From contig NZ_CP041660.1 of assembly GCF_007289895.1 (NCBI RefSeq), forward strand, positions 3,720,001 to 3,784,000: a stretch of DNA of 64,000 nt, in the 5' to 3' direction. Origin of the DNA: Catenovulum sediminis (GTDB taxonomy: Bacteria; Pseudomonadota; Gammaproteobacteria; Enterobacterales; Alteromonadaceae). The position numbers and the translations under genes are program-made. Below the pieces are notes generated by a model. That model ran no database searches. It was not told the DNA's origin and was given only the letters and a program-made list of their open reading frames with translations. Of this stretch, positions 5,264 through 20,443 are shown piece after piece (the first letter of the stretch is position 1; each line of letters opens with the position of its first letter).

Positions 5264-5426
5264 TGTAATTTACCTCACTTCTATCGAACGATCCCGCGAT
5301 TTTTTACCAAACTACAATCCACTTCAGCCAATGATTTATAACGCGTAATTCGGTAAATCAAAATTTTTGTCCCACCGCTAAATAATTTTTCTTGAGCCAA
5401 TTCGATATTTTTTGTTTGATGTACGG

Positions 5427-5984
5427 ATGCAAACTTTCTTTCGAAACATCGCCGCTATCGAACGTTATCTAGAGCCTTGTCACCGACACTACACTTTGCG
5501 CTGCAAACATTGTGATTTACAAGGGCATTTGATTAGCCATGGTTTTATCTACAAACAGCTTTCGATGTCCGAGCACAAAGTGGTTGGTAAGCGCGTTGTC
5601 TGCTCTAACCGCCATGGTCACAACGGCTGTGGTCGCACTACACAATTGGTTTTGGCTGAGCACATACCCAATCGACAATACAATGCTCTGCATTTAAGTT
5701 TATTCATTCTGTTATTGCTGGCTAATGTCTCTGTTGTTAAAGCTTATCAGCAGGTCACTCAGCAATTTGAAGCCCGCCATGCTTGGCGTTGGCTTGCGTG
5801 TTTAAAAATCAATATCACCCATTATCGTTTATTGTTGCAATCTTCTTTGCCGTTACATCACTCAAGTGGCACTCAACATCCTATTTTTGCAACCTTGGCG
5901 TCACTTTGTCAGGTGTTTGCTGTAATTTACCTAACTTCTATCGAACGATCCCGCGATTTTTTACCAAATTATCATCAACTTTAA
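5427..5984 (+). pseudogene. Zinc-ribbon/HTH protein of transposon A, interrupted by element B
   Basis: The product begins MQTFFRNI, with zinc-ligand pairs CKHC and C...GCGRT, then a helical region like an HTH (around AWRWLACL). It is a paralogue of 6062-6619. Element B inserted at 5921, so the last visible residues come from transposon DNA. Removing B and one copy of the TTTGC duplication restores a frame continuing at 9064-9115 and ending ...FQFHAQRAFI, close in length to the paralogue. The function is not established. The layout recalls IS1 InsA (zinc finger plus HTH), and a role in regulation or target choice is an inference. I prefer the ATG at 5427 over the TTG at 5412. Confidence 0.8.
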
Positions 5985-6061
5985 ATCCATGATTATTATG
6001 GTAATTTGGTAAACTGAATTTCTGTGTAGAATTTTAACTTTTACTTAAATGGTTAATTTTC

Positions 6062-6619
6062 ATGCAGCGATTTTTTTCTTCACTTTTTGAGTTGGACGTT
6101 TTTACTCAATCGTTAGATAGCTTAAATTCTAATCAAACTTGCCAGCATTGTGCGTGCTCTAACAGTTGGGTATCTCATGGTTTTATTTATCGTCAGTCAG
6201 GATTGAAAGTCGGTAAACGTATTTTGTGTGCCAATCGTTATGGTAAATCTGGTTGTGGTCGTACTTTGGCTTTGTACTTGGCTGATGTCATCCCTAATCG
6301 TCGTTATTCTTTTAGTGTGATTTGGGCATTTGTTTTGTCACTGCTACAAGGCTCAACCGTTGAACTAGCCTATTATTCGGCTATTGGTCATTGTCACTTT
6401 TCGCACAGGCAAGCTTATCGTTGGCTCTCTGTTTTGTATGCTCAATTAGGTTTCTTTCGTAGTTGCTTAGCTCGATTTAATTTAAGATTTTTTGAGTGTA
6501 ATTTTGTGCATTTTCGCTCCGCTCGTTTGGCTGTGTTACTGCCGACGTTGGCAACTTTAGCTCAGCGTTTTACCAATATCTCGTCTATTCAAGCTGGTTT
6601 AAATCACAGATTTTGTTGA
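6062..6619 (+). CDS. Zinc-ribbon/HTH accessory protein of transposon B
   Basis: A 185-residue protein with CQHC, then C-x-N-R-Y-G-K-S-G-C-G-R-T, giving a probable four-Cys zinc ribbon in residues 25-65. The helical remainder contains HRQAYRWLSVL, which resembles an HTH. It is the first gene of a three-gene set with the transposase and ATPase downstream. The same gene order occurs in element A, so it is a conserved part of this transposon type. No catalytic motif is visible. The arrangement recalls IS1 InsA or the zinc-binding target selectors of Tn7-like elements, but assignment to either is only inference. The ATG at 6062 is in a weak ribosome-site context. Confidence 0.7.
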   Translation: MQRFFSSLFELDVFTQSLDSLNSNQTCQHCACSNSWVSHGFIYRQSGLKVGKRILCANRYGKSGCGRTLALYLADVIPNRRYSFSVIWAFVLSLLQGSTVELAYYSAIGHCHFSHRQAYRWLSVLYAQLGFFRSCLARFNLRFFECNFVHFRSARLAVLLPTLATLAQRFTNISSIQAGLNHRFC

Positions 6620-6725
6620 ATTTTCATCTTATTTTCGTTGCAACCGATTTTGTCATTTTGCGAGGGTTAGCCTTGTTTTAGTCTCCTGATGCTTTATTGC
6701 ATTTAATATTTTTAGGAGATTTTTT

Positions 6726-7955
6726 ATGCCCATTCCGTCATTAGAAGTGCGTTTACGTGTACTCGCCGCCGTTGATGCGGCGCAAGGTGCAACGGTTCGT
6801 GAGCGCATTAAACACGTTAGTCAGCAATCTTTTACCTGCCATCAGTCCAATCATGTGTTTAAGTTTACTTGGCGCACCATTAGCACCTGGCTTTACCGAT
6901 ATAAAAAAGATGGTATTACCACGCTTGAGAAGAAGACCCGTGCAGATAAAAATGCGCAACGTAAAGTGCAAGTGGCTGAGCTCGCTGAAGCATTAAGTGA
7001 GGTTTTACCGAGTTTATCAGCCAACAAGGTTGGTGTTGTGCCTAAAAGTACGATTTATCGCGTATTATTGGCACGTAACTATTTTACCCGTGCACAGTTA
7101 GCCCCCACCACCTTTTATCGCTTTGTGCGTGAGCATGAGTTGTTGGATTTAGAGTCAACCAACAAGCTTAGAATGGCGTTTGCGATGTTGCATGCCAATG
7201 AGTTATGGCAGGGGGACACCATGCATGGCCCCGCCATTAAACAGCCTGACGGCAAGTATAAAAAAACCTTTTTCATTGCTTTTATTGATGATGCATCACG
7301 CTTAATTACCCACGCCGAGTTTTTCTACCGTGATGATACACAGAATATGATTAATGCTTTTAGAACCGCTTTGTATAAACGCGGTAAACCTGAGCGTTTG
7401 TATTTTGATAACGGTGCAAATTACACCGCGAAAGAGATTTTACAGGCGTGCGTGCGATTGGATATTCGCTTGTCTCATGCACCCGTTAGAGATGGCGCAG
7501 CTAAAGGTAAAATTGAGCGGTTCTTTCGTGGCTTTAGGGATAGATTTTTAGTCATGCATACTGAGTTTTCTTCGCTTGAGCAGTTAAATCAGTTAGCACA
7601 AGCGTGGGTGGAAGATGAATATAATTCGAAGCCACATTCGGCCATTCAAATGACGCCACTGGATAGGTTTAATTTAGATTATCGGCGCATTCAATATTTA
7701 CCCAATAATGAATTTACCGAGGAGGTGTTTTTTATTGAGGAAGAACGCAAGGTGTCTAAAGTGAATGTGTTTTCTATCAACAGTTGTAAATTTGAATGCC
7801 CTGTCGATTTACGCGGTAAAACCGTACAAATTCGTTATGACCGCAGCGCCCGAGATAGGTTTATTGTTTATTACAAAGACCAGAGAATGGGCGATGCAAT
7901 GCCATTGAACCTGTATTTAAACGCTCAATTGGCAAGGGAGTATAAACATGATTAA
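6726..7955 (+). CDS. DDE transposase (rve core, TniA/TnsB-like), transposon B
   Basis: A 409-residue transposase. The N-terminal part has an HTH region (about 10-70), followed by an integrase-core domain with the catalytic triad D164 (in WQGDTMHG), D228 (in YFDNG) and E264 (in KGKIERFF), giving DX35E spacing. The C-terminal beta-rich part (from about 320, near VSKVNVFSI) matches the Mu/TniA C-terminal barrel type. It would cut the transposon ends and join them to target DNA, working with the ATPase whose gene overlaps its last 8 bases. The start follows a clear AGGAG site. It is closely related to, but diverged from, the transposase of element A. Confidence 0.9.
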   Translation: MPIPSLEVRLRVLAAVDAAQGATVRERIKHVSQQSFTCHQSNHVFKFTWRTISTWLYRYKKDGITTLEKKTRADKNAQRKVQVAELAEALSEVLPSLSANKVGVVPKSTIYRVLLARNYFTRAQLAPTTFYRFVREHELLDLESTNKLRMAFAMLHANELWQGDTMHGPAIKQPDGKYKKTFFIAFIDDASRLITHAEFFYRDDTQNMINAFRTALYKRGKPERLYFDNGANYTAKEILQACVRLDIRLSHAPVRDGAAKGKIERFFRGFRDRFLVMHTEFSSLEQLNQLAQAWVEDEYNSKPHSAIQMTPLDRFNLDYRRIQYLPNNEFTEEVFFIEEERKVSKVNVFSINSCKFECPVDLRGKTVQIRYDRSARDRFIVYYKDQRMGDAMPLNLYLNAQLAREYKHD

Positions 7956-8754
7956 TGCAATTTGGGGCATTCGTGATGTGCCATTTAAGCGAGAGCCAAA
8001 CCAATTATTAAAACAGCAGCAAACCATTTTTGACATCATTCAAATTCATGCCAAACAAGGCGGGTTTTCTGTGGTATTAGGCCAGCCTGGTGTGGGTAAA
8101 ACTGTATTGCGTGAGCATATTGAAAAGTTGGACGCGACACGTGAATCCACTGTCGTTTCTTGCTCGCGTACTATGCATACTTACCGGCAAATTGTTAGGC
8201 AATTAGCCGAAGCATTTAAGTTAGATTGCACTGATAAAACCATTGAAAAAGAGCTCATTAACGCCGCGTTTAGCCAAGTGAAAGCACATAAAACTTTGTA
8301 TATTTTAATTGACGAGGCGCATTTATTGGAAATTGCAGCTTTACGTAAATTACGTTTGTTGTTTGAGCGTTTTCCAAAAAATCATAACTTGGTATTGTTT
8401 GGCCAACCTGAGTTGTTGCATGCGTTATCGCTGACGGCGAATCAAGATATTAAGAGCCGCATTACCTATTCTGCCCACATTAAACCTTTGAATGATGATG
8501 ACCTACAGGCCTTTATTATCCGTGAGCTTGAGCAAGCCAAAATGGGCATAAATACCTTTGATGAAAATGCGATGGCGTTAATTATTCGTTCAAGTGAGGG
8601 CAATTTGAGGTTATGTCGAAACTTATGTTTAGCCAGTTTGATAGAGGCTGCACGAGAGACTAAAAAAACGGTCACCATAACCCATGTTAATCAAGTGCTC
8701 GTGCAGCCGCACTGGCGTAACCACGAGCAACTGATTAAACAACAGGTGACTTGA
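7948..8754 (+). CDS. AAA ATPase, ExeA/TniB-like, transposon B
   Basis: A 268-residue ATPase. The Walker A motif GQPGVGKT is near residues 45-52 and Walker B is ILIDEAH near 120. The profile matches ExeA/GspA and TniB/TnsC ATPases, which in transposons choose target DNA and activate the transposase. The gene overlaps the transposase gene by 8 bases, indicating coupled expression. Unlike element A, no small ORF follows. The 3' end is succeeded by a 12-bp perfect hairpin and a rho-independent terminator. Confidence 0.88.
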   Translation: MINAIWGIRDVPFKREPNQLLKQQQTIFDIIQIHAKQGGFSVVLGQPGVGKTVLREHIEKLDATRESTVVSCSRTMHTYRQIVRQLAEAFKLDCTDKTIEKELINAAFSQVKAHKTLYILIDEAHLLEIAALRKLRLLFERFPKNHNLVLFGQPELLHALSLTANQDIKSRITYSAHIKPLNDDDLQAFIIRELEQAKMGINTFDENAMALIIRSSEGNLRLCRNLCLASLIEAARETKKTVTITHVNQVLVQPHWRNHEQLIKQQVT

Positions 8755-8811
8755 TGCTTGCGTTTAACTTTAACCTTGTTTTGTGATTGAACGATCGAGA
8801 AAACAGGGCTT

Positions 8812-8873
8812 TTAAATGCTCGCTACGCGAGCATTTAAGCAGAAAACACTCAGGGGCGAAAGCCCTTTTTTTT
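8812..8873 (+). terminator. Hairpin plus rho-independent terminator after transposon B genes
   Basis: A perfect 12-bp hairpin occupies 8812-8838 (TTAAATGCTCGC, loop TAC). About 15 bases later GGGC-GAAA-GCCC (8854-8865) is followed by eight T, a textbook terminator for the rightward transposon operon. Confidence 0.85.
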
Positions 8874-9300
8874 GTGTCGAAAAATTAGTTTAAACCCCTA
8901 TCCACAGGGCGTTCGACGCCAATTCGGTTCAAACTATGACAGCAATTTGGCTGAGTTGAAAATTGTTATGATGGTAGCGCGGTAAAGTAGTGTATTTTTT
9001 AGCCGATCGTATGACCGATAATTTGGGAAAAGTTATGATGGGAAAAAAGTACGCTACATTTGCAGGCTTAGTCTGTCTTGAGTTTCAATTTCATGCTCAA
9101 CGGGCTTTTATATAGCTTCTTCATTGGCCTTTTTTTCCTGATTTCCAGATTTTGTCGCCGTGAATTTCCAATATTGTTGTCGCATTGTTTGCTCATCAGA
9201 GCTTCATTTAATTGCCCCACATAAGCGGTCAGTCGGCTGCCTTGTTGTTTTTTATTAAGGTCGCGTGAATCTTTTAATCAATTACAAGGACTTCTCTTTT
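8874..9300. other. Right end of B, tail of the A zinc gene, and leader of the A transposase
   Basis: 8874-9058 is the non-coding right end of element B with A-rich GGTAAA/GGGAAA repeats. 9059-9063 is the second TTTGC duplication. 9064-9115 is the 3' remainder of the interrupted zinc-ribbon gene of A, ending TAG. 9116-9300 is the leader of the transposase gene, with no further gene seen. Confidence 0.7.
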
Positions 9301-10542
9301 ATGACTCAGTTAAAAGCCAACAAACCACCATTAGAAATTCGTTTGCAAGTGTTAAGCGCGGTCGATTATGCAAAAGGCGCGACCATTAAAGCGCGTATTC
9401 AAGATGTCGCGACACGCACTTTTGTAGATAAACAAACCAATATTCACTACCAATTTACTTGGCGTACCATTAGCACTTGGGTGTATCGTTTTAAAAAACA
9501 TGGCGTAACCACGTTAGACAATAAAACCCGCATAGATAAAAACCACTACCGCAAAGTGCAACCTAATGAGCTTGCCGAGGCCATTCATGAGGTACTGCCA
9601 ACCCTTGGTCGCAGTAAAAATGGTCATGTGCCTAAAATGGCTTTATATCGGCGTTTATTAGCCAATGGGTTGTTTAAACGTTCACAATTATCACAAACCT
9701 CTTTTTATCGAATGGTCAGTACACATGGCTTGTTAGACAGTGAGCAATGTCAAAAACTGCGCCAGTCTTTTGCTATGCAGTTTAGCAATGAGTTGTGGCA
9801 GGCAGACACGATGCACGGTATTCGGGTAAAGGATGAACAAGGCAATCTACGCAAAACCTTTTTAATCGCCTTTATTGATGATGCTTCGCGCTTAATTATT
9901 CATGCCGAGTTTTTCTATGCCGACAATACCACCAATATGTGTGATGCCTTTAGAACTGCTTTATTTAAACGCGGTAAACCTGAACGCCTGTACTTTGATA
10001 ATGGCAGTAATTATTCGTCTAAAGAAATTTTACAAGCTTGTGTGCGCTTGGATATTCATCTGTCCCATGCCCCCATTCGAGATGGTGCGGCCAAAGGGAA
10101 AATAGAGAGATTCTTTCGGCGTTTTCGTGACCAGTTTTTAGTGGACAACCCTAACATCACCTCTCTAGATGAGCTCAATGATAAAACCAATGAATGGGTT
10201 GAACACTGTTATAACAGTCAATTTCATTCTGGTATTCAAATGACCCCTTTGGACAGGTTTTGTTTGGACTTAAATCGCATTCAATTTATTGCCGATGATG
10301 AATTTACCGAAGAGGTGTTTTTTGTGGAGCAAGACCGCAAGGTGTCTAAAACCAATGTCTTTTCCATTCATAAACAACAATTCGAATGCCCTGTTGATTT
10401 ACGCGGTAAAACGATACAGGTTAGGTTTAACCGCAGCGCACTAGACAAGTTTATTGTCTATTACCAAGACAAACGCATGGGGCAAGCCAGTTGTTTAGAT
10501 TTACACGCCAATGCCATCAGACATATGCGAGGTGATGCATGA
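9301..10542 (+). CDS. DDE transposase (rve core, TniA/TnsB-like), transposon A
   Basis: About 413 residues from the ATG at 9301, which matches the start of the B paralogue. A start at 9265 would add 12 unrelated residues. HTH region at the N-terminus, integrase core with D in WQADTMHG, D in YFDNG and E in KGKIERFF, and a Mu-type C-terminal beta domain. It is complete and shares most residues with the B transposase. The stop overlaps the ATPase start by 4 bases. It is likely functional, but element A has lost its intact zinc-ribbon gene, so autonomous transposition of A may be impaired. Confidence 0.88.
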   Translation: MTQLKANKPPLEIRLQVLSAVDYAKGATIKARIQDVATRTFVDKQTNIHYQFTWRTISTWVYRFKKHGVTTLDNKTRIDKNHYRKVQPNELAEAIHEVLPTLGRSKNGHVPKMALYRRLLANGLFKRSQLSQTSFYRMVSTHGLLDSEQCQKLRQSFAMQFSNELWQADTMHGIRVKDEQGNLRKTFLIAFIDDASRLIIHAEFFYADNTTNMCDAFRTALFKRGKPERLYFDNGSNYSSKEILQACVRLDIHLSHAPIRDGAAKGKIERFFRRFRDQFLVDNPNITSLDELNDKTNEWVEHCYNSQFHSGIQMTPLDRFCLDLNRIQFIADDEFTEEVFFVEQDRKVSKTNVFSIHKQQFECPVDLRGKTIQVRFNRSALDKFIVYYQDKRMGQASCLDLHANAIRHMRGDA

Positions 10543-11348
10543 TTTCTTCTGTATTTGCCATTACTAAAGAGCCGTTTAATCGCACGCATTTGGCTTTGTT
10601 ACCGCAGCAAAAACACATTGTTGATATTATTAAAATTCACGCCGCGCAAGGCGGGTTTTCTGTCATTATTGGTGAGCCTGGTGTCGGTAAAAGTGTATTG
10701 CGCGAACATATTGAAAGTTGGTGCAATGAGCGTGACACCTCTGTGGTTTCAGTTTCCAGAACCATGCATACTTACTTGAATATTTTAAAGCAATTGGCCT
10801 TATCATTTAAATTAGATGTGCCTGCTAAAGATTTAGAAACTGAGCTGATTAAAGCCGCCTTTGAGCATGTTCGTCAACGTAAAACGCTATACACCTTAAT
10901 TGATGAAGCGCATTTGTTGAACATGGAAACATTACGTAAATTGCGTTTGTTGTTTGAGAAATTCCCGAAAAAACACAATTTAGTTTTATTGGGGCAGCCA
11001 GATTTATTGCACTATCTATCGCTGAATATTAATGCGGATATCAAGTCGCGTATTACTTTTTCTCAAGCTATTAAACCTCTGAATGATGGTGACCTTGAAC
11101 GCTATATTGTAAAGGAATTAGAAGCCGCTAAAATGGGTATCAACACCTTTGATTCTGCTGCCATTGAGGTCATATTACGCTCGGCAAATGGTAACTTACG
11201 TTTATGCCGTAATCTGTGTTATGCCAGTTTGATTGAAGCCTGTCGCGAGGCTAAAAAGATTGTCACCATCAGTCATGTGAACAACGTACTGATTCAACCA
11301 CATTGGCGCAGCCATGAAGAATTGATTAAGCAACAGGTGGTATCATGA
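10539..11348 (+). CDS. AAA ATPase, ExeA/TniB-like, transposon A
   Basis: A 269-residue ATPase with Walker A GEPGVGKS and Walker B TLIDEAH, paralogous to 7948-8754. It overlaps the transposase gene at its start (ATGA) and the 55-codon ORF at its end (ATGA), so the three are probably translated in a coupled fashion. By analogy with TniB/TnsC it selects target DNA and stimulates the transposase. Confidence 0.87.
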   Translation: MISSVFAITKEPFNRTHLALLPQQKHIVDIIKIHAAQGGFSVIIGEPGVGKSVLREHIESWCNERDTSVVSVSRTMHTYLNILKQLALSFKLDVPAKDLETELIKAAFEHVRQRKTLYTLIDEAHLLNMETLRKLRLLFEKFPKKHNLVLLGQPDLLHYLSLNINADIKSRITFSQAIKPLNDGDLERYIVKELEAAKMGINTFDSAAIEVILRSANGNLRLCRNLCYASLIEACREAKKIVTISHVNNVLIQPHWRSHEELIKQQVVS

Positions 11349-11512
11349 AAATACTACAAACCACCCAATACCTAAGTGCGCAAGACGCCGAGCCAATCAT
11401 ACACTTCTTGGATGATATTCGTGAAATGCTAATCACTCATTACGGTGAGGAAATACGCCAACATCATCGTAGTCGCTTAAAACTCGAAGAAAATGAGCAG
11501 AAAAACGAATAG
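11345..11512 (+). CDS. Small 55-residue protein, last gene of transposon A
   Basis: Begins MKILQTTQYLS and ends rich in Glu, Lys and Asn. It overlaps the ATPase stop codon in the ATGA pattern, which supports translation. No counterpart follows the ATPase of element B. It is a predicted soluble, charged, mainly helical protein of unknown function. It may be an accessory factor or a passenger. Confidence 0.55.
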   Translation: MKILQTTQYLSAQDAEPIIHFLDDIREMLITHYGEEIRQHHRSRLKLEENEQKNE

Positions 11513-11818
11513 TTAAACCCCATGCGCCAGAGCATCATACCCCAACGCCTGAGTTAAATACTCGGGCGTTTTACGTTTTATCGAAGTGAAACTTGACCTT
11601 ATTTGGAAAATTGCCTACTCCATCCAATACGACGATAAATTGGTTAAGAGTATGATTCAGCTTGGGAAATTGTATGATTGATACTGGTAAATTGTACGAT
11701 ATGAATTTGGTGACGCTAAAAAATTGTTCGATAACAGTGTGGTAAAAACGTCATATTTTGCCCAAATCTTACGATATTTTGATTGGTAAAAAATATGACG
11801 TTATTTATGTAAACAACA
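11513..11818. other. Right end of transposon A with repeated transposase-binding candidates
   Basis: There is no gene here. At least four related motifs point the same way: GGGAAATTGTATGAT (11664-11678), GGTAAATTGTACGAT (11686-11700), GGTAAAAACGTCATA (from 11741) and GGTAAAAAATATGACG (from 11785). The terminal bases are GTAAACAACA. Arrays of short end repeats of this type are typical transposase binding sites in Tn7- and Mu-like elements. Confidence 0.65.
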
Positions 11819-12778
11819 GCCGGTATGGCTCTTTTGCCCTAGAGAAGGCATAGTCGTAATAGCTTCGACCGTCCCAGAAAATAACGCTGCGACTTGTCCA
11901 CCACTTGCGTTGTACATACCTTCCATAGTGCTAGCCCAATCTGATGTATTAAATAAGGTAAATTCAATGCCAGCATCAACCCCAGGAACTCCAACAGTAG
12001 CGCCACCTTGAGCACTCCAATATCTTCCAAATGACACCTCCTGCCTAGAGAAATCCATATTAAAGAAAATACCTGCGGCACCAGCTCCCCCTATACCAGC
12101 ATCACCGCTGATAGAAGAACCAACAGCAAACGTAAACCCAGAATTTTCAACCGACATCCAATCAATAGATGAATCATTTAAAATAGAGCTTTCTAGATCA
12201 ATACCTTGATCCATCCTCGTTGTATCCATTCCTAAATCAACCCAAGGTGTATATTTAGCAATATCCAGCTCTAAATCAGGTATTAGAGTGTTTTTCTGAA
12301 TCCATTCTGAGTTAGCTAAATCGCTATTTTGGCGATAGTCTTTGTATTGCTCTTCATATGCTTTGAAGTCAGCATCGATGCGCTGCCTCTCAGCAACAGT
12401 GTGTTCTCGGCGCATACTTTCTTTTTGGCTACGAGCTATTTGCAGTACTTCAAAATCCGCATCAAATTTATCTCGTTGCGCTTGGCCTGTTTTGTTGATG
12501 CTGTTTGTTGATTCTTTTTCAGCGCCAGCAGTCGTACTTTTGGCTATATCTGCCATTGGCTCATCAATATTGCCGAGCTTGTCTAAATTAATTAATTTAT
12601 TAGCTCGGTCATTAATGGCTTTTTGCTCTGCTGCCGTTAAATCTTTTTCAGCACTCATCCCCTCAACAATGCTATTCCCCAACGCATTGCCAAAAGCAAT
12701 CACCCCGCCATGCAGTCCTACGCATAGAGGCATTTTCCCTTTTATTTTCAGGTTGTTGTGAGCGGATATCTGGTTCAT
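11801..12778 (-). pseudogene. Orphan toxin tip, copy 1, 3' end replaced by transposon A
   Basis: The same toxin tip as 19445-20443, but the insertion at 11819 replaces its last 45 or so residues with five residues from transposon DNA (CCLHK). The missing part is at 5123-5263. Upstream it differs from copy 2: the frame continues through GLHGGVIAFGNALG to an ATG at 12778, so more of the pre-toxin segment is present. The toxin is probably inactive because its C-terminus is gone. The matching lipoprotein gene at 4704-5120 is now 6.7 kb away. Confidence 0.8.
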
Positions 12779-13418
12779 TTGTGCAGTATCTTACTTTTTT
12801 GCCCTAGATGCACTTTTTTTTCTTAGTGGCGGGTAAATGGCTGGGTTGGCCGTTAGGCCAACATAGCCATTTAACCGTCTATTGCCCCTTGGGGTTGGGG
12901 TTGGGGGTTATAAAGTGTTGGCGCTTGCGCCAGCTTTGTAGGCTTTAGGCAATTTATACATAATGTAAATTATAGGGCGCTAGCGGACTGTACCCAACAA
13001 TGTGGCTCGGCCACTTTATTGGGTACAGCCTATAATTTTTTACATTATGTTAACCCGAAGGGCTTGATTGCCTAAAGCTGGTTAAGCCCTAAGCTTAGGG
13101 GTGAACAGGATTAGCAGAAGTTTACTTCTGCCCTGTGAACACCGAAGCCATGGATGGCGTAGGGTGCCTGGCGTTGCGTAGCAGGACTGTGAAGCTACAG
13201 AAGGCGCATTGGAAGGAGCTTGCGACTGGAGATGTGGGGTTTGGTAAATAAAAAAACCGCAGTGAACCTTTAAGCGTGGGCGCTGGCCTTGCTGCTTTAG
13301 TGCTTAAGTTTGCTAGGGCTTTTGTTGCAAGGCCTGTGACTGCGCTTTAAGGTGAGCAAGCTGCCTTTTTGTTTCTGGGGCTTGCCGATAATGATGATGT
13401 TCGAGTGCCGACTCTATT
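12779..13418. other. Gene-free structured region
   Basis: 640 bases without a convincing gene. 12942-13078 is a large imperfect palindrome (separate entry). Downstream there are further small palindromes, for example GCAGAAG-TTTA-CTTCTGC near 13109-13126 and CCCTAAGCTTAGGG near 13086-13100. The region is richer in G and C than its neighbours and has many short inverted repeats, so it could encode a structured RNA or mark recombination. I do not recognise it. Confidence 0.45.
12942..13078. repeat. 137-base imperfect palindrome with two inverted dif-like sequences
   Basis: The outer arms are GCTTTAGGCAAT (12942-12953) and ATTGCCTAAAGC (13067-13078). The inner arms are CTGTACCCAA...GTGGC (12988-13006) and GCCAC...TTGGGTACAG (13010-13028). 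In between, the minus strand of about 12952-12979 reads as an 11-6-11 site, CCTATAA-TTTACA-TTATGTATAAA, which resembles dif (XerD arm TTATGT..AA). On the + strand CCTATAA...TTATGTTAA (13029-13053) is a second dif-like sequence with a 9-base centre. Paired inverted dif-like sites that fold into a hairpin are known from the CTX-phage attP. The link here is inference. Confidence 0.5.
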
Positions 13419-13745
13419 TTACTCAAACTCTTTTAATATTTGTTTTAAAGCTTCTGCTGTTATATCCGATTGTTCCGCTTTTGAGTATATGGTCACCAGT
13501 ATGCAACGTATGTCTGTTTTAAGGTAATAAATTATTCGGTAACCACCACTTTTACCTCGTTTACTGTCGCTATTTTGCGCTCTAACTTTATACAAGGTGT
13601 AAGGAACACCTGTTATTTGTGAACCTGGTGTTTCACCGTTGACAAGCGCTCGTAAAATTGGACTCACATCTGTTTTTATTCGTTTGTATTTACGTGATAA
13701 ACGTTTTAGCTGGCGTTTAAACCCTTCTGTGTATTCTATATTCAT
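13419..13745 (-). CDS. RelE/ParE-superfamily toxin of a toxin-antitoxin pair
   Basis: A 108-residue basic protein with the RelE-like core: an N-terminal helical part (FKRQLKRLSRKYKRI), then the beta-sheet region KVRAQNSDSKRGKSGGYRIIYYL and ILVTIYSKAEQ near the C-terminus. Members of this family are usually mRNA-cleaving toxins, or gyrase inhibitors in the ParE branch. The branch cannot be told here. Its gene lies 6 bases after the antitoxin gene on the same strand. It sits between the two copies of the long repeat and may stabilise them. Confidence 0.82.
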   Translation of the reverse strand: MNIEYTEGFKRQLKRLSRKYKRIKTDVSPILRALVNGETPGSQITGVPYTLYKVRAQNSDSKRGKSGGYRIIYYLKTDIRCILVTIYSKAEQSDITAEALKQILKEFE

Positions 13746-13751
13746 TTTAAT

Positions 13752-13976
13752 TTAATCAACGTCAATGCCATCCCACAGGGTTTCTATTGGATGCGTTTTA
13801 CCAGCCACGACCTCTTTCCAGCCTTCTTTGAAGCTGGCTTCTGCTGATGGCAAATCAGATGAAACCCCTTCATTAAACGAATGAACAATCCGCAATAGTA
13901 ACGGACGGTATTCTTCAGGAGTTTGGTCGATTTCAGCGTGTAATTGCTTAGTGTAATCAATCATGGTTATGGGCAT
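13752..13976 (-). CDS. Antitoxin partner of the RelE-like toxin
   Basis: A 74-residue acidic protein lying immediately upstream of the toxin gene, the usual antitoxin-first order. The C-terminal segment (ASFKEGWKEVVAGKTHP...LWDGI) looks like the toxin-wrapping tail of antitoxins paired with RelE-type toxins. No clear DNA-binding domain was identified, although the N-terminal part may provide it. The assignment rests on size, order and partner. Confidence 0.75.
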   Translation of the reverse strand: MPITMIDYTKQLHAEIDQTPEEYRPLLLRIVHSFNEGVSSDLPSAEASFKEGWKEVVAGKTHPIETLWDGIDVD

Positions 13977-14078: not shown

Positions 14079-15125
14079 TTAAATTTCATCTTCTTCATCC
14101 TCTAACATTTGCTGTAATTCGGCCATATCCTCTCCTTCGGCTTCTGAGGCTTTTTTCAGTTTGGCGGGATGGCAGCGTGTGTGAACGTCTTTTAAAGCTT
14201 TGATGCTCACTTGGGTGTATATCTCTGTGGTGCTCAGCTCTGCATGACCTAGCATGGCTTGGATAAAGCGAATGTCTGCGCCATTTTCTAACATTAGCGT
14301 GGCCATTGTGTGCCTAAATAAATGGCAACTGCCTTGTTTGGGTATACCTGATTTTTCAACATATTGGGCTATGGTGCGTGACAGCCAGTTTTCATTAAAC
14401 TTTTCACCGAGCCTAGTTAAAAATAATGTGCCATCGTCACTGGCCAGTGCCAGCTCTGGGCGCACTTCGTTTAGGTAGCAGCTTATCCAGTGTGCGGCTC
14501 GCTCGCCAAGCGGTAACATGCGGTCTTTTTTGCCTTTGCCTTGGCGTACCAGTATGGTTAACCGCTCTAAATCGATATCAAATACGCTTAGGTTAACCAC
14601 TTCCATTCGGCGTATGCCGGTTGAATACAGCACTTCCATTACGGCTCTGTCTCGAATACCCAGTGGCTCGGCGCTGTTGGCTTGGCGCATCACTTTTTCA
14701 ACTTCTTTTTCACTTAATATGGCTTTGGGTAAACGTTGGCGTATTTTGGGTGGCTCTAGTTCGCTGGCTGGGTTATACAGCAGGTAGTTGCTTTTGGTTA
14801 ACCATTTAAACCAGCTTTTAAGTGGGCTTAATTTAGCCCGTTGTGAGTAGATGGACAGTGGTTTGCCGTCTGCTTTGCGGTATAAATATAAATGCCTTTG
14901 GTAGCGCTCTAATATGGGTTTGGTGATTTCTGGCGGTTGGCGCAGGGCTCGGCCATCACACCATTCAATAAAATCTCGTATGTAGCGTTCATTATTCCAC
15001 AGGGTTTGCTCTGTGTAGTGTTTGATGCGTAGTGCATCTAAATAATGGTGCATAAAGGCAAGCAGGCCATTGGGGTCGGTTGGGTCGCCAACCTGTTTAA
15101 TAAAACGTTTTTCTCGTTTAGGCAC
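14079..15125 (-). CDS. Tyrosine recombinase/integrase, copy 2 (complete)
   Basis: A 348-residue phage-type integrase. The N-terminal SAM-like core-binding domain (about 20-125) is followed by the catalytic domain with R172 (STGIRRME), H268 and R271 (CHLFRHTMA), H294 (LGHAELSTT) and nucleophile Y303 (TEIYTQ). The acidic tail (last 15 residues, DEEDEI at the end) is unusual. It starts with GTG after an AGGAG site, and this start overlaps the last 8 bases of the primase gene, so the two are one operon. It probably moves the primase-regulator unit. The cognate attachment sites were not identified. Confidence 0.92.
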   Translation of the reverse strand: MPKREKRFIKQVGDPTDPNGLLAFMHHYLDALRIKHYTEQTLWNNERYIRDFIEWCDGRALRQPPEITKPILERYQRHLYLYRKADGKPLSIYSQRAKLSPLKSWFKWLTKSNYLLYNPASELEPPKIRQRLPKAILSEKEVEKVMRQANSAEPLGIRDRAVMEVLYSTGIRRMEVVNLSVFDIDLERLTILVRQGKGKKDRMLPLGERAAHWISCYLNEVRPELALASDDGTLFLTRLGEKFNENWLSRTIAQYVEKSGIPKQGSCHLFRHTMATLMLENGADIRFIQAMLGHAELSTTEIYTQVSIKALKDVHTRCHPAKLKKASEAEGEDMAELQQMLEDEEDEI

Positions 15126-18100
15126 GGGCAGCTCCTTTTTGTAGGTACGACAGGATTTGTCCGTTTACCCCTATAGGTTCATTTTCTTCTATTTTGGGTA
15201 AAGTGTGCGCCATTGCCTGCGGTTGCTGGCTTGATGTGGGGTGACTACCTGCCGACTTAGTACCGACTTGGGGGTGACCAGCCCCCGACAGGTGCGAAGG
15301 TTCCCCCGACAGCAAAGCCTGCAACCCCGACTTGCTTGCATCACACTGGTATTGACTGTTGTTTTCAACGTCTAATAAACCCTGTAAAAACCGCCCTTCA
15401 TGTTCGCCTGTGTAGAGCAGCTCATAAATAAATGAGTGTCCGCGACTGCCTCTGTGCACAAGCAGGTATTCCATTTCTTCCAATCGTTTGATGTGTACTT
15501 TCAGTTGGGTATTGCCCCAGCCGCTATAGTCTCGAACAGCTTTGCGGGTAAAGCGGTAATCACTTTGTTGTATTTTTTGGGTTTGGCAGGCATCCAAGAC
15601 CATTTTATGGATAAAATGCAGCAGTTTGCGGGTTTGCGGTGGCAGCTCGTCTAAGGTGCGCCCGAGTACTTCATGTGCTAGGTGATTAGCCACTTGAATG
15701 TCGCTGTGGGTGACTTCTATGTATTCTAGTAGTTGGCCTTTGTGCTCAATGCGTTTTATCTCGCGTTGGTATTGGTGTAATAACGCTATGGCTCGGATAA
15801 GTGTTAGGTATTTCATATGGTCGCGGCGCGTACGGGTTTTATCCGATAAAAAGGTTAATTGCTCGGCATAGGGGTTGGCGACCAGTAAAGGGCGTAATAG
15901 TCGTTGGGCATTTTGGTGTAGGTGTATCACGTCTTTTTTGTTGTTTTCAGCAAGCAGGCCTTCTATGGTTTGGCGCTGGCGCTGCATTTTGTGGATGGCT
16001 TCGGTTTGTTCGCGGGTTTCATTGACGGATAACACTAAGCAGCGGTTCATCAGTTCTTCATCAATATCTATCGCTGTGGTGGTCATCATTAACATCACAG
16101 GCCCTTCTACTTTATATTGCTGCGTTTCTAAATTGCCTGTGACTGGGTTTTTACCTGTTGAAGCGATACTCACCTCACCTTCTGATTGCAGTAGTTTTAA
16201 TGCATAGGCGGCTTGGTCTGCTCCTTCCTCTTCTGATATGGCCAGTATTTTATGTTTTAGGTTGGTTTCGCCCATGTAATACAGGCTTTGGCCTGTCATT
16301 GAGCTAAATTGGATGCGCTCTTCTGTTGGTGTCATATTTAACACTGCATCCATTAATGAGCTTTTGCCTGCGGCGCTGCTAGATTGGATCATAACCGCTA
16401 ACGGTTTATCGAGCTTGCGACTAACCGCGGCCAAGTAACCGACAAGCTTGTTGGTTTCCTCTCCAATAACGCCGCAGGCCTCGAAGTCTTGTAAAATGCG
16501 GCTAAGAAGAGAAGGTGAATTTAAAAGTTCAAGGGCAGCTTTGCGCTCTGCTTCGGTTAAATGATTATGCTGACTGGTTTGGGCTTGTTTGTTTTGTTGT
16601 TTTTTATCTTGCAGCGATTCAAGCTTAAGTAATATATGGCCTAAGTCTTTTTTAATGTCATCTTCTGATACGCAGAGTTCTAAGCTGGCTTGTTTGATGT
16701 ATAAATGTCTGGCACGCGCTGAGTAAATATCTAAATTATCAACATGGAAGCTATCCTCTAAACTCACCAGTAAATTTACTTTTAGCTGCTCGACACTTTG
16801 GTTTTTATCTAAACCTCGGATGCGGTAACGGCGATTGTCTAAGGTGATGATAAGTTCATTGGATGCACTGGCGTTTTCATCTAAATCGGTTTGCTCTGGC
16901 ATGTTTTGTTCTGGCGTTGTTTGTGTGGGCATTGCTTGCTCAGGTATGGCAGCCGCTTCGGTTGGGTACATCTTTTCTGGCCCTACACCTTTTCCTAACC
17001 ACTGTGCTTTTCTTATCGCAAGGCCAAGGCTTTTTTGTGCAGGTTTAACTTGTCGGGCATATTCGTTGGCATCCATGCCTTTTGGAAATAATATTCTAAA
17101 TACTTCAAAGCCTTGATTCATCAGTTGTTCAGCTAAACTGTCTGCGGCTTTATTGCCTGCATCATCTCTGTCGTAGGCAATTAACACACGTTTAATTTGA
17201 TGTTGTTTAAAGGCTTGTAAGTGGTCGTCTATAAAACCATTGGTGCCATAACTTGCGGTGACATTTCTAAAACCATGTACCCAAAAGGTCATGGCATCAA
17301 TTAGGCTTTCACATAAAATAATTTCATCTGTGGCGCTCAGTGCTTGAATATTCCATACCCCTTGATGTGGGCCTGGTAAGTAGGTGTGTTTGGGGGTGCC
17401 TTTGCGTAAGTTGTCTAATAGTTTGCGGCCGTATATTTCGACTATGTGGTTTTGTTCATCGACCACGGGCACCACAATTGAGCCATTAAAATGCTCATGG
17501 CCTGATTGTCTTAATATGCCAAGTTGTTGCAGCTTGCCGCGAATATCAGCCCCTGCTTGGCGATTTTTTTGTGGTAGGCGATAACCGAGCGTGCGATTTG
17601 CAAAACCCAGTTGAAAGGTATCAATCAGCTTTGGGTGTTCAAGGCCGCGCTGTTTTAAATACGCCAAGGCTTCAGGTGATTGTTTGAGCGTTTGGTGATA
17701 ATAACCCACCACTTGTTGAAGCGTCGCTTGTGAGTCGGCATCACCACTTAACGGCGTTGGCAATTTTTGTGTGGTGCCATATTTTACCGCCTTTGTCGTT
17801 GGCTCAGCCTCACTAGCGACTAAGGAAGAAATATCTTGCGATGCACATGGATGTGCAAGTGCCGCGTGAGAATGGATATCGGAAGCGGTTAGTATTTCAA
17901 CTGCATGACGAAAGCTCACGCCTTGTGTTTTCATCACCCAATCAATCACTGAGCCACTTTCACCGCACCCAAAACAGTTAAACAAGTTTTTAGATGGGGT
18001 AATAACACAACTTTCCGTTTTATCATCATGAAATGGGCAGCACAGCGCTTTGTCTTTTACGCCATGACTTTTGAGTTTATAGCCTTGTGATTCAACCAAG

Positions 18101-18159
18101 CGACATAAATCGACTTGTTGTTTGATTTGGTTGATTAATTCATCTGAAAGTCGTGCCAT
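15118..18159 (-). CDS. CHC2 primase / Toprim / ATPase fusion, copy 2 (complete)
   Basis: A 1013-residue replication protein. It has a DnaG-type CHC2 zinc finger (C41, H44, C62, C65), a primase core, then a Toprim domain (E284 in CESLIDAM, D330 and D332 in YDRDDAG). A linker with Pro/Gln/Thr repeats (about 400-430) leads to an ATPase-like C-terminal half with a Walker A-like loop SSSAAGKSS (593-601) and an acidic Walker B-like strand (ILAISEEEG). Primase-helicase fusions of this kind are used by satellites, plasmids and integrative elements for self-replication. It is the first gene of an operon with the recombinase and is divergent from the regulator. Confidence 0.88.
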   Translation of the reverse strand: MARLSDELINQIKQQVDLCRLVESQGYKLKSHGVKDKALCCPFHDDKTESCVITPSKNLFNCFGCGESGSVIDWVMKTQGVSFRHAVEILTASDIHSHAALAHPCASQDISSLVASEAEPTTKAVKYGTTQKLPTPLSGDADSQATLQQVVGYYHQTLKQSPEALAYLKQRGLEHPKLIDTFQLGFANRTLGYRLPQKNRQAGADIRGKLQQLGILRQSGHEHFNGSIVVPVVDEQNHIVEIYGRKLLDNLRKGTPKHTYLPGPHQGVWNIQALSATDEIILCESLIDAMTFWVHGFRNVTASYGTNGFIDDHLQAFKQHQIKRVLIAYDRDDAGNKAADSLAEQLMNQGFEVFRILFPKGMDANEYARQVKPAQKSLGLAIRKAQWLGKGVGPEKMYPTEAAAIPEQAMPTQTTPEQNMPEQTDLDENASASNELIITLDNRRYRIRGLDKNQSVEQLKVNLLVSLEDSFHVDNLDIYSARARHLYIKQASLELCVSEDDIKKDLGHILLKLESLQDKKQQNKQAQTSQHNHLTEAERKAALELLNSPSLLSRILQDFEACGVIGEETNKLVGYLAAVSRKLDKPLAVMIQSSSAAGKSSLMDAVLNMTPTEERIQFSSMTGQSLYYMGETNLKHKILAISEEEGADQAAYALKLLQSEGEVSIASTGKNPVTGNLETQQYKVEGPVMLMMTTTAIDIDEELMNRCLVLSVNETREQTEAIHKMQRQRQTIEGLLAENNKKDVIHLHQNAQRLLRPLLVANPYAEQLTFLSDKTRTRRDHMKYLTLIRAIALLHQYQREIKRIEHKGQLLEYIEVTHSDIQVANHLAHEVLGRTLDELPPQTRKLLHFIHKMVLDACQTQKIQQSDYRFTRKAVRDYSGWGNTQLKVHIKRLEEMEYLLVHRGSRGHSFIYELLYTGEHEGRFLQGLLDVENNSQYQCDASKSGLQALLSGEPSHLSGAGHPQVGTKSAGSHPTSSQQPQAMAHTLPKIEENEPIGVNGQILSYLQKGAARA

Positions 18160-18272: not shown

Positions 18273-18659
18273 ATGCCATCGATTCATTATTGGACTCGGC
18301 ATATGCCAACCATAGACAAACTGTTTTATCAACAATTAGGTCAACGTATTGCTTTTTTTAGGAAAGAAGCGGATTTAACTCAGTCTCAGTTGGCTGAGTT
18401 ATTGGGTATTTCTCAACAAACTATGGCGCACTACGAGGTGGGACGTTTACGTATTTCTGTTGAGCTATTAAGTAAATTGGCACAAACCTTAACCATTGGT
18501 ATTGAGCAATTACTGCAAGAGCCTGTGCCGAATCAAACAACTAAGCGTGGACCAACTTCTTTGCTGCAAAAACAAATTGAACAGGTAAGCCAATTGCCCC
18601 GAGCTAAACAGAAGTTTGTGAGTGAAATGCTAGATGCTGTGATACAGCAAAACTCTTGA
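18273..18659 (+). CDS. XRE-family HTH transcriptional regulator, copy 2
   Basis: Matches 3951-4337 in sequence: 128 residues, XRE HTH at about 20-78, basic helical tail. It is divergent from the primase gene with palindromes between them, so it is a likely repressor of the mobile unit. With two identical regulator genes in the cell, both units would be controlled together. Confidence 0.85.
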   Translation: MPSIHYWTRHMPTIDKLFYQQLGQRIAFFRKEADLTQSQLAELLGISQQTMAHYEVGRLRISVELLSKLAQTLTIGIEQLLQEPVPNQTTKRGPTSLLQKQIEQVSQLPRAKQKFVSEMLDAVIQQNS

Positions 18660-19025: not shown

Positions 19026-19442
19026 TCACTGACCAAGATCACTAATCAGGCAATTAAAATCCAACAAAGGCCTTGTTGCTGTATAACCATACTTACTATA
19101 ACCATCCCACATCTCAGCAAAGTGGATTTGAGCGCCATTGCCTGCAACAGTAAAATAATAATTATCCTCAACACCTTCGATCTTTAGATAATACTTCACT
19201 GTCGTATGGCCCACATTGTAGCGAATTGTTGCCACTTCCATACAGCTATAAAAAGTGTTACCTAAAAGACCTTGTTTAAATGGCCGCCCACCAGTTTTTA
19301 ATTCATTCAAATCTGAGTACAACCAAAATTTAGACTCACTAGAAATCCCATTTAAAACATTGCGATATGGATCTAGATTTGGTACACAAGCTACAACCCA
19401 TAAGCATATGAAGAGCACTTTATGTAAACTAAAATTAGTCAT
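19026..19442 (-). CDS. Small lipoprotein, candidate immunity protein (copy 2)
   Basis: About 138 residues with a lipoprotein signal (lipobox VVAC near residue 19). The ATG at 19442 lies 2 bases after the toxin-tip stop codon at 19445, so the pair is translated together. An earlier TTG at 19454 would overlap the toxin gene. The family is unknown. Position after a polymorphic-toxin tip makes immunity the best guess, and lipid anchoring suggests protection at the periplasmic side of the membrane. Confidence 0.68.
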   Translation of the reverse strand: MTNFSLHKVLFICLWVVACVPNLDPYRNVLNGISSESKFWLYSDLNELKTGGRPFKQGLLGNTFYSCMEVATIRYNVGHTTVKYYLKIEGVEDNYYFTVAGNGAQIHFAEMWDGYSKYGYTATRPLLDFNCLISDLGQ

Positions 19443-19444
19443 TT

Positions 19445-20443
19445 CTAGTCCCATATTTTTTCCCAGATATATCCTGGTATTTCTCTATATTTCAACGTAG
19501 TTGGGGATATAGGAGCGCCATAACCAAACTGCGTATGACCTTCGATTGTAGGTGTGCCTAATCCCAAAGTAAGCTGGATGCCGGTATGGCTCTTTTGCCC
19601 TAGAGAAGGCATAGTCGTAATAGCTTCGACCGTCCCAGAAAATAACGCTGCGACTTGTCCACCACTTGCGTTGTACATACCTTCCATAGTGCTAGCCCAA
19701 TCTGATGTATTAAATAAGGTAAATTCAATGCCAGCATCAACCCCAGGAACTCCAACAGTAGCGCCACCTTGAGCACTCCAATATCTTCCAAATGACACCT
19801 CCTGCCTAGAGAAATCCATATTAAAGAAAATACCTGCGGCACCAGCTCCCCCTATACCAGCATCACCGCTGATAGAAGAACCAACAGCAAACGTAAACCC
19901 AGAATTTTCAACCGACATCCAATCAATAGATGAATCATTTAAAATAGAGCTTTCTAGATCAATACCTTGATCCATCCTCGTTGTATCCATTCCTAAATCA
20001 ACCCAAGGTGTATATTTAGCAATATCCAGCTCTAAATCAGGTATTAGAGTGTTTTTCTGAATCCATTCTGAGTTAGCTAAATCGCTATTTTGGCGATAGT
20101 CTTTGTATTGCTCTTCATATGCTTTGAAGTCAGCATCGATGCGCTGCCTCTCAGCAACAGTGTGTTCTCGGCGCATACTTTCTTTTTGGCTACGAGCTAT
20201 TTGCAGTACTTCAAAATCCGCATCAAATTTATCTCGTTGCGCTTGGCCTGTTTTGTTGATGCTGTTTGTTGATTCTTTTTCAGCGCCAGCAGTCGTACTT
20301 TTGGCTATATCTGCCATTGGCTCATCAATATTGCCGAGCTTGTCTAAATTAATTAATTTATTAGCTCGGTCATTAATGGCTTTTTGCTCTGCTGCCGTTA
20401 AATCTTTTTCAGCACTCATCCCCTCAACAATGCTATTCCCCAA
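19445..20443 (-). CDS. Orphan polymorphic-toxin C-terminal tip (cassette 1)
   Basis: 332 residues from a TTG start. The region before it stays open back to the stop codon of the preceding gene, so the piece has no normal start and looks like a displaced C-terminal end. It begins in the shared motif (AF)GNALGNSIVEGM, continues with a linker of about 100 residues shared with cassette 3 (SAEKDLTAAEQKA, TTAGAEKESTNS), then a unique glycine-rich beta-like toxin part from about residue 160. No catalytic motif is recognised. A lipoprotein immunity candidate follows directly. Such tips recombine onto a full-length Rhs-like effector to change its toxin. Confidence 0.75.
   Translation of the reverse strand: MGNSIVEGMSAEKDLTAAEQKAINDRANKLINLDKLGNIDEPMADIAKSTTAGAEKESTNSINKTGQAQRDKFDADFEVLQIARSQKESMRREHTVAERQRIDADFKAYEEQYKDYRQNSDLANSEWIQKNTLIPDLELDIAKYTPWVDLGMDTTRMDQGIDLESSILNDSSIDWMSVENSGFTFAVGSSISGDAGIGGAGAAGIFFNMDFSRQEVSFGRYWSAQGGATVGVPGVDAGIEFTLFNTSDWASTMEGMYNASGGQVAALFSGTVEAITTMPSLGQKSHTGIQLTLGLGTPTIEGHTQFGYGAPISPTTLKYREIPGYIWEKIWD

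What the first reader, a model, noticed from the sequence alone, without database searches (positions are those of the whole stretch)
12942..13078. Inverted dif-like pair in a large palindrome
A minus-strand sequence with 11-6-11 layout (CCTATAA, TTTACA, TTATGTATAAA) and a + strand one (CCTATAA...TTATGTTAA) lie inside nested inverted repeats. CTX-phage attP is a folded single-stranded hairpin made from two inverted dif-like sites, so this could be an attachment site for XerCD-dependent or single-strand integration, next to a toxin-antitoxin pair.
Basis: partly seen in the sequence, partly recalled or inferred. Interest (0 to 1): 0.62.

Follow-up and report, generated by a model that had tools for sequence, protein, structure and literature searches.

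The report
Folded recombination site beside toxin arrays
A large DNA hairpin built from two mirror-image sites that resemble the chromosome-resolution site dif sits beside a gene for a XerC-like DNA recombinase, in a mobile-looking unit that lives among bacterial toxin cassettes, and it may be the handle by which such units are cut out and moved.

Summary
The palindrome is real and by far the strongest hairpin in the window. It lies in noncoding DNA 3' of a module: HTH repressor, CHC2/Toprim primase, XerC-type tyrosine recombinase (NCBIfam NF002331) and a toxin-antitoxin pair. The module sits in arrays of orphan Rhs-type toxin modules. Three identical copies and two decayed palindromes occur in this genome, all in such arrays, none at host dif. 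Relatives of the module in several phyla sit in similar arrays. In 17 of 75 regions 3' of the recombinase (window included) a hairpin with the same stem base (ACATAA:TTATGT) was found; 25 permuted motifs averaged 1.6. In E. coli/Shigella and several other Gammaproteobacteria one arm is close to dif, and spacers are often unequal (9 and 6), the architecture of the CTX-phage folded attP. The boxes covary across 15 arm pairs. Two circular plasmid records consist essentially of such units (assembly artefact not excluded). So a dif-like, folded recombination site is well supported. Integration of a phage into dif by XerCD is not: the unit encodes its own Xer-type recombinase and is not at dif. Strand exchange at the hairpin, its crossover point and the enzyme used remain inferred.

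The parts
12942..13078 (.). whole palindrome / folded site, outer stem GCTTTAGGCAAT
   Evidence: identical in 3 genome copies
12953..12980 (-). dif-like arm B: GCGCCCTATAA-TTTACA-TTATGTATAAA (11-6-11)
   Evidence: sequence; relatives
13025..13055 (+). dif-like arm A: ACAGCCTATAA-TTTTTTACA-TTATGTTAACC (11-9-11)
   Evidence: relatives
12988..13028 (.). apical hairpin (loop part, variable in relatives)
   Evidence: inverted repeat I2; relatives
12825..13418 (.). structured noncoding region of the unit between toxin core and TA pair; left limit approximate
   Evidence: 12780-13418 folds with z -12.9 against 20 shuffles; L028 and L037 share sequence only up to about 12815-12824
13419..13745 (-). 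RelE/ParE-like toxin of the TA pair
   Evidence: Pfam, below gathering cut-off
13752..13976 (-). antitoxin (RelN-like, weak)
   Evidence: NCBIfam NF050107 31 bits, cut-off 70
14079..15125 (-). XerC-type tyrosine recombinase (int)
   Evidence: NF002331 453 bits, cut-off 371; best solved relative XerD 1a0p, E 4e-45
15118..18159 (-). CHC2 zinc-finger/Toprim primase, 1013 aa
   Evidence: Pfam
18273..18659 (+). HTH repressor, RstR-like, divergent from the primase
   Evidence: NF041951 65 bits, cut-off 80
12655..12698 (-). 44-bp core (encodes AFGNALGNSIVEGM) near the start of orphan toxin modules
19026..20443 (-). orphan module X: presumed immunity gene 19026-19454 and toxin CT 19445-20443
   Evidence: ORFs; position and core; no family match for the immunity ORF

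Best explanation
The palindrome is the folded, dif-like recombination site of a small integrative unit made of HTH repressor, primase, XerC-type recombinase and often a TA pair. As a single strand it folds so that a XerD-like box (ACATAATG/CATTATGT) lies at the stem base and a XerC-like box further in; the central stretches of the two arms are unequal here (9 and 6 nt) and leave a 3-nt bulge. The unit resides in arrays of orphan Rhs/Cdi-type toxin modules. I infer that it, with neighbouring modules, can leave as a circle copied with the help of the primase, and that the element's recombinase, perhaps with host XerC/D, acts at this site in excision, integration or circle resolution. Shown: the structure, its recurrence and covariation in part of the relatives, the gene module, the toxin-array setting. 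Suggested: circles. Not shown: strand exchange at the hairpin, the enzyme used, the crossover point.
For: Hairpin. Same module in relatives: 76 loci from the best 80 of 187 stretches; a piece of the primase found in 69 of the 76. Motif CATAA-N5-9-TTATG in those 76 loci: 19 hits in 86 kb within 1.5 kb 3' of int (14 loci), 1 in 137 kb further on, 0 in 292 kb of int+primase, 2 in 211 kb upstream. Hairpins with an ACATAA:TTATGT base (one change allowed) in 17 of 75 regions, window included and some regions closely related; 25 permuted motifs gave 0-6, mean 1.6. Stem boxes of 15 distinct arm pairs: 96% of cells paired, 8 of 15 pairs with changes on both sides, covariation 0.364 against 0.112 shuffled, 0 of 500 as high, slid registers at most 0.126. 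CTX attP: two inverted dif-like sites about 90 bp apart, spacers 12 and 7 (6 in one variant) (PMC3089051 passages). RHS core, home-made profile, in 30 of 76 loci, each hit on the int strand. Own arrays: C1 order Int-X-V-W, C2 order W-Int-X-V, a circular permutation of about 11.7 kb at >99% identity. Circular records of 8,758 bp (Shigella) and 11,289 bp (Lonsdalea) carrying recombinase, HTH and hairpin.
Against: No junction was found that breaks inside the hairpin and could mark a crossover; the intact copies read keep the hairpin whole and internal, unlike an integrated CTX. 58 of 75 regions gave no such hairpin, the Pseudomonas ones among them. Unequal spacers are not universal: equal in L072, L111, L123 and L128, 4 of the 18 hairpins. 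The second arm is often a poor dif match (E. coli arm B 14 of 22). The circular permutation and the circles can be explained by RecA acting on the 44-bp core, on shared toxin sequence or on tandem units, and the circular records may be assembly artefacts of tandem repeats. Host-dif tracking is inconsistent: the window follows its host's unusual dif in part, L118 and L111 do not follow theirs. On the recombinase tree the hairpin needs about 6 changes, at least 4 forced, so it is either old and often undetected or lost, or gained repeatedly.
Confidence: 0.62

Rival explanations
1. Resolution site of a plasmid-like unit (cer/psi-like): the recombinase or host XerCD turns circle multimers and tandem copies into monomers; integration into rhs loci is by RecA through the toxin core.
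For: Tandem or repeated units in several loci. The Shigella circle corresponds to one tandem unit, 97-99% identical. The hairpin stays whole in the chromosomal copies read. Homology in the core suffices for RecA.
Against: An inverted folded pair is not the layout of cer-type sites (recalled; the passages of PMC5357621, describe cer as a 280-bp region acting with two further proteins); a stem kept by covariation is not needed for a duplex site.
Confidence: 0.2
2. Single-strand origin or primase start hairpin for the element's own primase.
For: A piece of the primase gene in 69 of 76 loci; strong hairpin in noncoding DNA that recurs in relatives.
Against: One arm is close to dif in several hosts (20 of 22 in E. 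coli, 19 of 22 in L110), which primase sites would not need.
Confidence: 0.08
3. CTX-type attP used by host XerCD to enter dif.
For: Same two-arm layout; XerD box TTATGTTAA identical to host dif1 and dif2 in 9 of 9.
Against: None of the copies in this genome is at dif; own recombinase encoded; phage records gave 12 matches, all below 60% identity; the window's arms are no closer to host dif than two chance sites.
Confidence: 0.05
4. Structured RNA or terminator without a recombination role.
For: Further hairpins flank it.
Against: No Rfam match in this region at E up to 1; the three weak hits of the search lie elsewhere and below gathering score. The boxes are dif-like in relatives and the position is tied to the recombinase gene.
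Confidence: 0.05

Closest known systems
CTX phage attP (attP1/attP2 folded single-strand site; IMEX)
   Same: Two inverted dif-like sites, unequal spacers, about 90-nt span, one large hairpin; an RstR-like repressor gene (below cut-off) in the unit
   Different: Own XerC-type recombinase and primase, no phage genes seen in the unit, not at dif, hairpin whole in the integrated state
Integron attC/IntI
   Same: Xer-related recombinase beside a folded two-box site with bulge and variable loop (attC features recalled); cassette arrays
   Different: Boxes are dif-like, hairpin beside the recombinase rather than on every cassette, recombinase below the integron-integrase cut-off
Orphan Rhs/CdiA CT-immunity arrays
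   Same: Setting of the unit; [quoted passage not shown]
   Different: No recombination site or defined element in the passages read
Polyimmunity loci adjacent to XerC/D recombinase genes (PMC3482391 passage)
   Same: Same kind of recombinase near immunity genes, recombination role suggested
   Different: No primase in the text held; no hairpin or circle in the passage read
cer/psi/pdif sites
   Same: Xer-type arms
   Different: No inverted folded pair (recalled)

Membership tests
CTX-type IMEX attP | two inverted dif-like sites with unequal spacers folding into one ~150-nt hairpin | tested here: met
   layout, spacers 9 and 6, 137-nt hairpin; definition. The dif likeness of the window's own arms is at chance level and rests on relatives
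CTX-type IMEX attP | element lacks a dedicated recombinase and uses host XerCD | tested here: not met
   int at 14079-15125, NF002331
CTX-type IMEX attP | integrated at host dif | tested here: not met
   dif1 C1:3526411, dif2 C2:532087; copies at C1:3718614, C1:3732935, C2:730267
CTX-type IMEX attP | recombination by XerC on the single strand | not testable with these tools
   needs an assay
Integron | IntI with integron-specific model score | tested here: not met
   TIGR02249 131 bits, cut-off 265
Integron | a folded site attached to every cassette | tested here: not met
   in this genome whole palindromes lie only beside the three intact int genes; motif rare away from int in relatives
XerC subfamily PRK01287 (NF002331) | score above the curated cut-off | tested here: met
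   window 453 bits; 10 of 10 relatives tested 391-531 bits; cut-off 371
Rhs polymorphic toxin array | full-length RHS gene carrying the module core, plus orphan modules | tested here: inconclusive
   on C2 a 3133-aa ORF with RHS repeats is followed by a separate 1097-aa ORF that holds the core and has no Pfam match; 19 places match a core-and-pretoxin peptide

The most novel reading that the evidence does not exclude
A dedicated, integron-like recombination system for polymorphic toxins: a XerC-type recombinase, a primase and a folded dif-like site that excise toxin-immunity modules as replicating circles and re-insert them, with the hairpin seen mainly in Pseudomonadota and relatives of the gene module in Acidobacteriota, Verrucomicrobiota, Planctomycetota, Myxococcota and others.
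Probability: 0.3. Interest if true: 0.86.

Novelty: new variant of a known kind. Interest (0 to 1): 0.62.

Why it matters
How displaced toxin/immunity modules move and stack up in Rhs, CDI and T6SS loci is open: a Vibrio study that drew the integron parallel stated that so far no evidence existed that insertion is helped by an integrase (PMC5361080 passages). Here is a concrete candidate with a gene module and a recognisable site, found in a small share of E. coli (55 of 5426 complete genomes), so it can be tested in a laboratory strain. It would also be a self-encoded Xer-type enzyme acting on a folded dif-like site, between CTX attP and integron attC.

Tried and rejected
Rejected: dispersed intergenic repeat; known RNA family; phage-borne element; host-dif co-evolution as proof of XerCD use (window suggestive, L111 and L118 contrary). 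Permuted motifs that overlap the real one were not clean controls (ATAAC, 6 hits; ACATA, 16, more than the 14 of CATAA itself); one search left such permutations out. No crossover was found: pGD27-37 looked like a junction in the hairpin but is an insertion holding ISKpn21 with a 9-bp overlap. The decayed copy at C1:3091445 has lost the middle of the hairpin at a 5-bp repeat and left TTTATACATAA-TGTAAA-TTATGTTAACC, which slippage explains. The ends of the whole element were bounded only roughly. The recombinase tree lacks L130 and L171, whose sequences were overwritten in my script by alignment rows of the same name; its bootstrap had not settled. One search was a first hand-made arm alignment with filler letters and slips and is not used; one search misregistered L086/L087 by one base, mended by hand. 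A search for inverted repeats in the two L118 regions at the default threshold found none, although the folds show the stems.

Rows and choices: one search used 15 distinct arm pairs from the 18 hairpins (identical ones merged: L110/L124, L118.0/L116, L075/L111). L084 is in the arm set and was labelled as having the hairpin in the tree, but its right arm kept it out of the 17. The L128 arms are those of the hairpin at +1436, not of the one at +212 that picked. The arms were chosen because they fold, so the percentage paired leans towards the structure; two-sided changes are the better evidence. The 75 regions are not independent (two pairs come from one contig, several are close kin).

Not-in-print statements rest on the ten library searches, open-licence papers only. 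Of papers I saw listings, and passages of PMC2731167, PMC3089051, PMC5357621, PMC3482391, PMC10210955, PMC4927057 and PMC5361080; none was read whole.

Full report
Observation. The nested palindrome at 12942-13078 is present as described. It folds as single-stranded DNA to -48.7 kcal/mol (z -8.8, 0 of 200 shuffles), and a 140-nt scan of the window ranks it first at -41.9 against -28.7 for the next. Arm B is a true 11-6-11 28-mer on the minus strand; arm A on the plus strand has a 9-nt spacer. Against the host's own dif sites (ATATCCGATAA-TGTATA-TTATGTTAAAT, and a second with TGATGA in the middle) arm A matches 17 of 22 and arm B 14 of 22 bases; two other sites in the window also reach 17. From this window alone the dif reading would be no better than chance.

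Setting. The genome has two replicons, 4.11 and 0.76 Mb. The palindrome belongs to a unit: 44-bp core, about 720 nt of noncoding DNA, toxin and antitoxin, XerC-type recombinase, CHC2/Toprim primase, divergent HTH gene. Three copies are identical over the palindrome. Decayed copies lie near C1:3.09-3.11 Mb, two of them with palindrome remains, and at C2:0.65 Mb without. They lie in arrays of orphan modules that carry the same core; 19 places match a core-and-pretoxin peptide. On C2 a 3133-aa ORF with RHS repeats is followed by a separate 1097-aa ORF that holds the core. Between C1 and C2 the order of unit and modules is circularly permuted (Int-X-V-W against W-Int-X-V, >99% identical). Among 395 genomes of the family, 37 had a recombinase match at E up to 1e-50, and only this genome's and G347's listed matches were above 50% identity.

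Relatives. A scan of genome contigs gave 187 stretches that encode a relative; the best 80 were kept, 76 loci, 44-60% identical. A piece of the primase was found in 69 of 76. In 30 of 76 a home-made RHS-core profile matched, each hit on the strand of the recombinase, many about 6 kb upstream of its end or 0.2-2.6 kb downstream (range about -11 to +8 kb). Of nine neighbouring ORFs sent to Pfam besides the window's, six matched: ParD and ParE and AHH (L103), DUF6883 (L080), a DNA/RNA endonuclease (L171), RES (L076) and C39 (L172) are the families; two ORFs of L118 and one of L170 matched none. TA genes lie just 3' of the recombinase in L103, L171, L172, L173 and L174 as well. Ten of ten further recombinases tested belong to NF002331.

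The site. The window palindrome aligns with the hairpin 3' of the recombinase in L110 (65% over 125 nt, E 1e-5). In L072, L075, L084, L110, L111, L122 and L124 the arms are clear dif-like sites, e.g. ACTGCGCATAA-N9-TTATGTTACAT and GCGCCGCATAA-N6-TTATGTGTAAA in L110. In E. coli/Shigella arm A has 20 of 22 bases of E. coli dif and arm B 14. The motif CATAA-N5-9-TTATG is concentrated within 1.5 kb 3' of the recombinase (19 in 86 kb; 3 in the other 640 kb examined). Hairpins with an ACATAA:TTATGT stem base occur in 17 of 75 regions; 25 permuted motifs give 0-6. Over 15 distinct arm pairs, 8 of 15 stem pairs show changes on both sides, and the covariation score beats all 500 shuffles and all slid registers. 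In the window both XerC-like boxes differ together from the commonest form (TTATAGG instead of TTATGCG), keeping the stem. Spacers are unequal in most of the 18 hairpins but equal in L072, L111, L123 and L128. In L118, two neighbouring units carry mutually inverted hairpins with some 10-15 bp of flank, unexplained. 58 of 75 regions gave no hairpin, and on the recombinase tree its presence needs about 6 changes (L130 and L171 missing from the tree).

Circles and E. coli. Two PLSDB records are circular and consist essentially of the unit with orphan-array genes: Shigella flexneri SWHIN_104 unnamed3, 8,758 bp (annotated: xerC, HTH, SymE, ISEc1, two hypothetical genes; the primase would span the record start), and Lonsdalea populi N-5-1 unnamed1, 11,289 bp (two nuclease-type toxin genes, immunity genes, SymE, HTH, primase, xerC, TA); both carry the hairpin. 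The Shigella circle corresponds, at 97-99% identity, to one of two tandem units at the T6SS rhs locus of E. coli CREC-2 and SCU-113, so an assembly artefact or RecA excision cannot be excluded. A query of recombinase plus noncoding region matched in 55 of 5426 complete E. coli genomes (52 over at least 80% of it), and the hairpin in 55, none on a plasmid of that collection. Of seven E. coli stretches read, five hold the unit at the rhsE-like locus, one in IH5 holds a fragment elsewhere, and K-12 rhsE holds none.

Mechanism. CTX attP comprises two inverted dif-like sites about 90 bp apart, spacers 12 and 7 (6 in one variant), that fold into a 150-nt hairpin used by XerC (PMC3089051 and PMC5357621, passages). 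The site here has that anatomy with spacers 9 and 6. The unit differs by its own XerC-type recombinase, which aligns with XerD through the regions of the catalytic residues (the residues themselves recalled), its primase, its place in toxin arrays, and a hairpin that stays whole after integration. I therefore hold it to be a folded recombination site of this unit, most likely for its own recombinase, used in excision, integration or circle resolution. No crossover inside the hairpin was seen, and RecA acting on core sequences could explain the array rearrangements.

Known background. Orphan arrays with intervening integrase and transposase genes are described (PMC4927057, passages), polyimmunity loci next to XerC/D genes are noted (PMC3482391, passage), and a Vibrio study stated that evidence for an integrase in such insertions was lacking (PMC5361080, passages). 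In ten library searches I saw no paper that by title, abstract start or passage describes the primase-recombinase-hairpin unit; open-licence papers only.

Noticed in passing
window 5264-11818: A transposon (IS481-like rve transposase 9265-10542, below cut-off, plus AAA ATPase 10539-11348) has cut one copy of toxin module X and sits between a direct repeat of about 6 bp, judged from alignment ends.
   Followed up: partly
L118:7570-8080 and 13640-13900: The dif-like hairpins of two neighbouring units are inverted relative to one another, including 10-15 bp of flank, while sequence further out keeps its orientation.
   Followed up: partly
L077 and L078, about 0.6-1.0 kb 3' of int: Myxococcota units carry short, nearly perfect palindromic sites such as GGTTCGCATAATGCGCATTATGCGATCC, more like duplex recombination sites than the long hairpin.
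   Followed up: no
G000 C1:3732699-3744422 and C2:727979-739750: The two toxin arrays are circular permutations of one another over about 11.7 kb at more than 99% identity.
   Followed up: partly
L182:2384-5133 (IncHI2 plasmid pGD27-37) and L180: Remnants of this region, with ISKpn21 inserted in the hairpin, occur in an IncHI2 plasmid; a recombinase fragment with the region lies beside a MobH relaxase gene in E. coli IH5.
   Followed up: partly
window about 36404-37371: Direct repeats in tandem with a spacing of about 96 bases, 82-90% alike.
   Followed up: no
G000 C1:3091445: A decayed copy has lost the middle of the hairpin between the arms, leaving one 11-6-11 palindromic site.
   Followed up: yes
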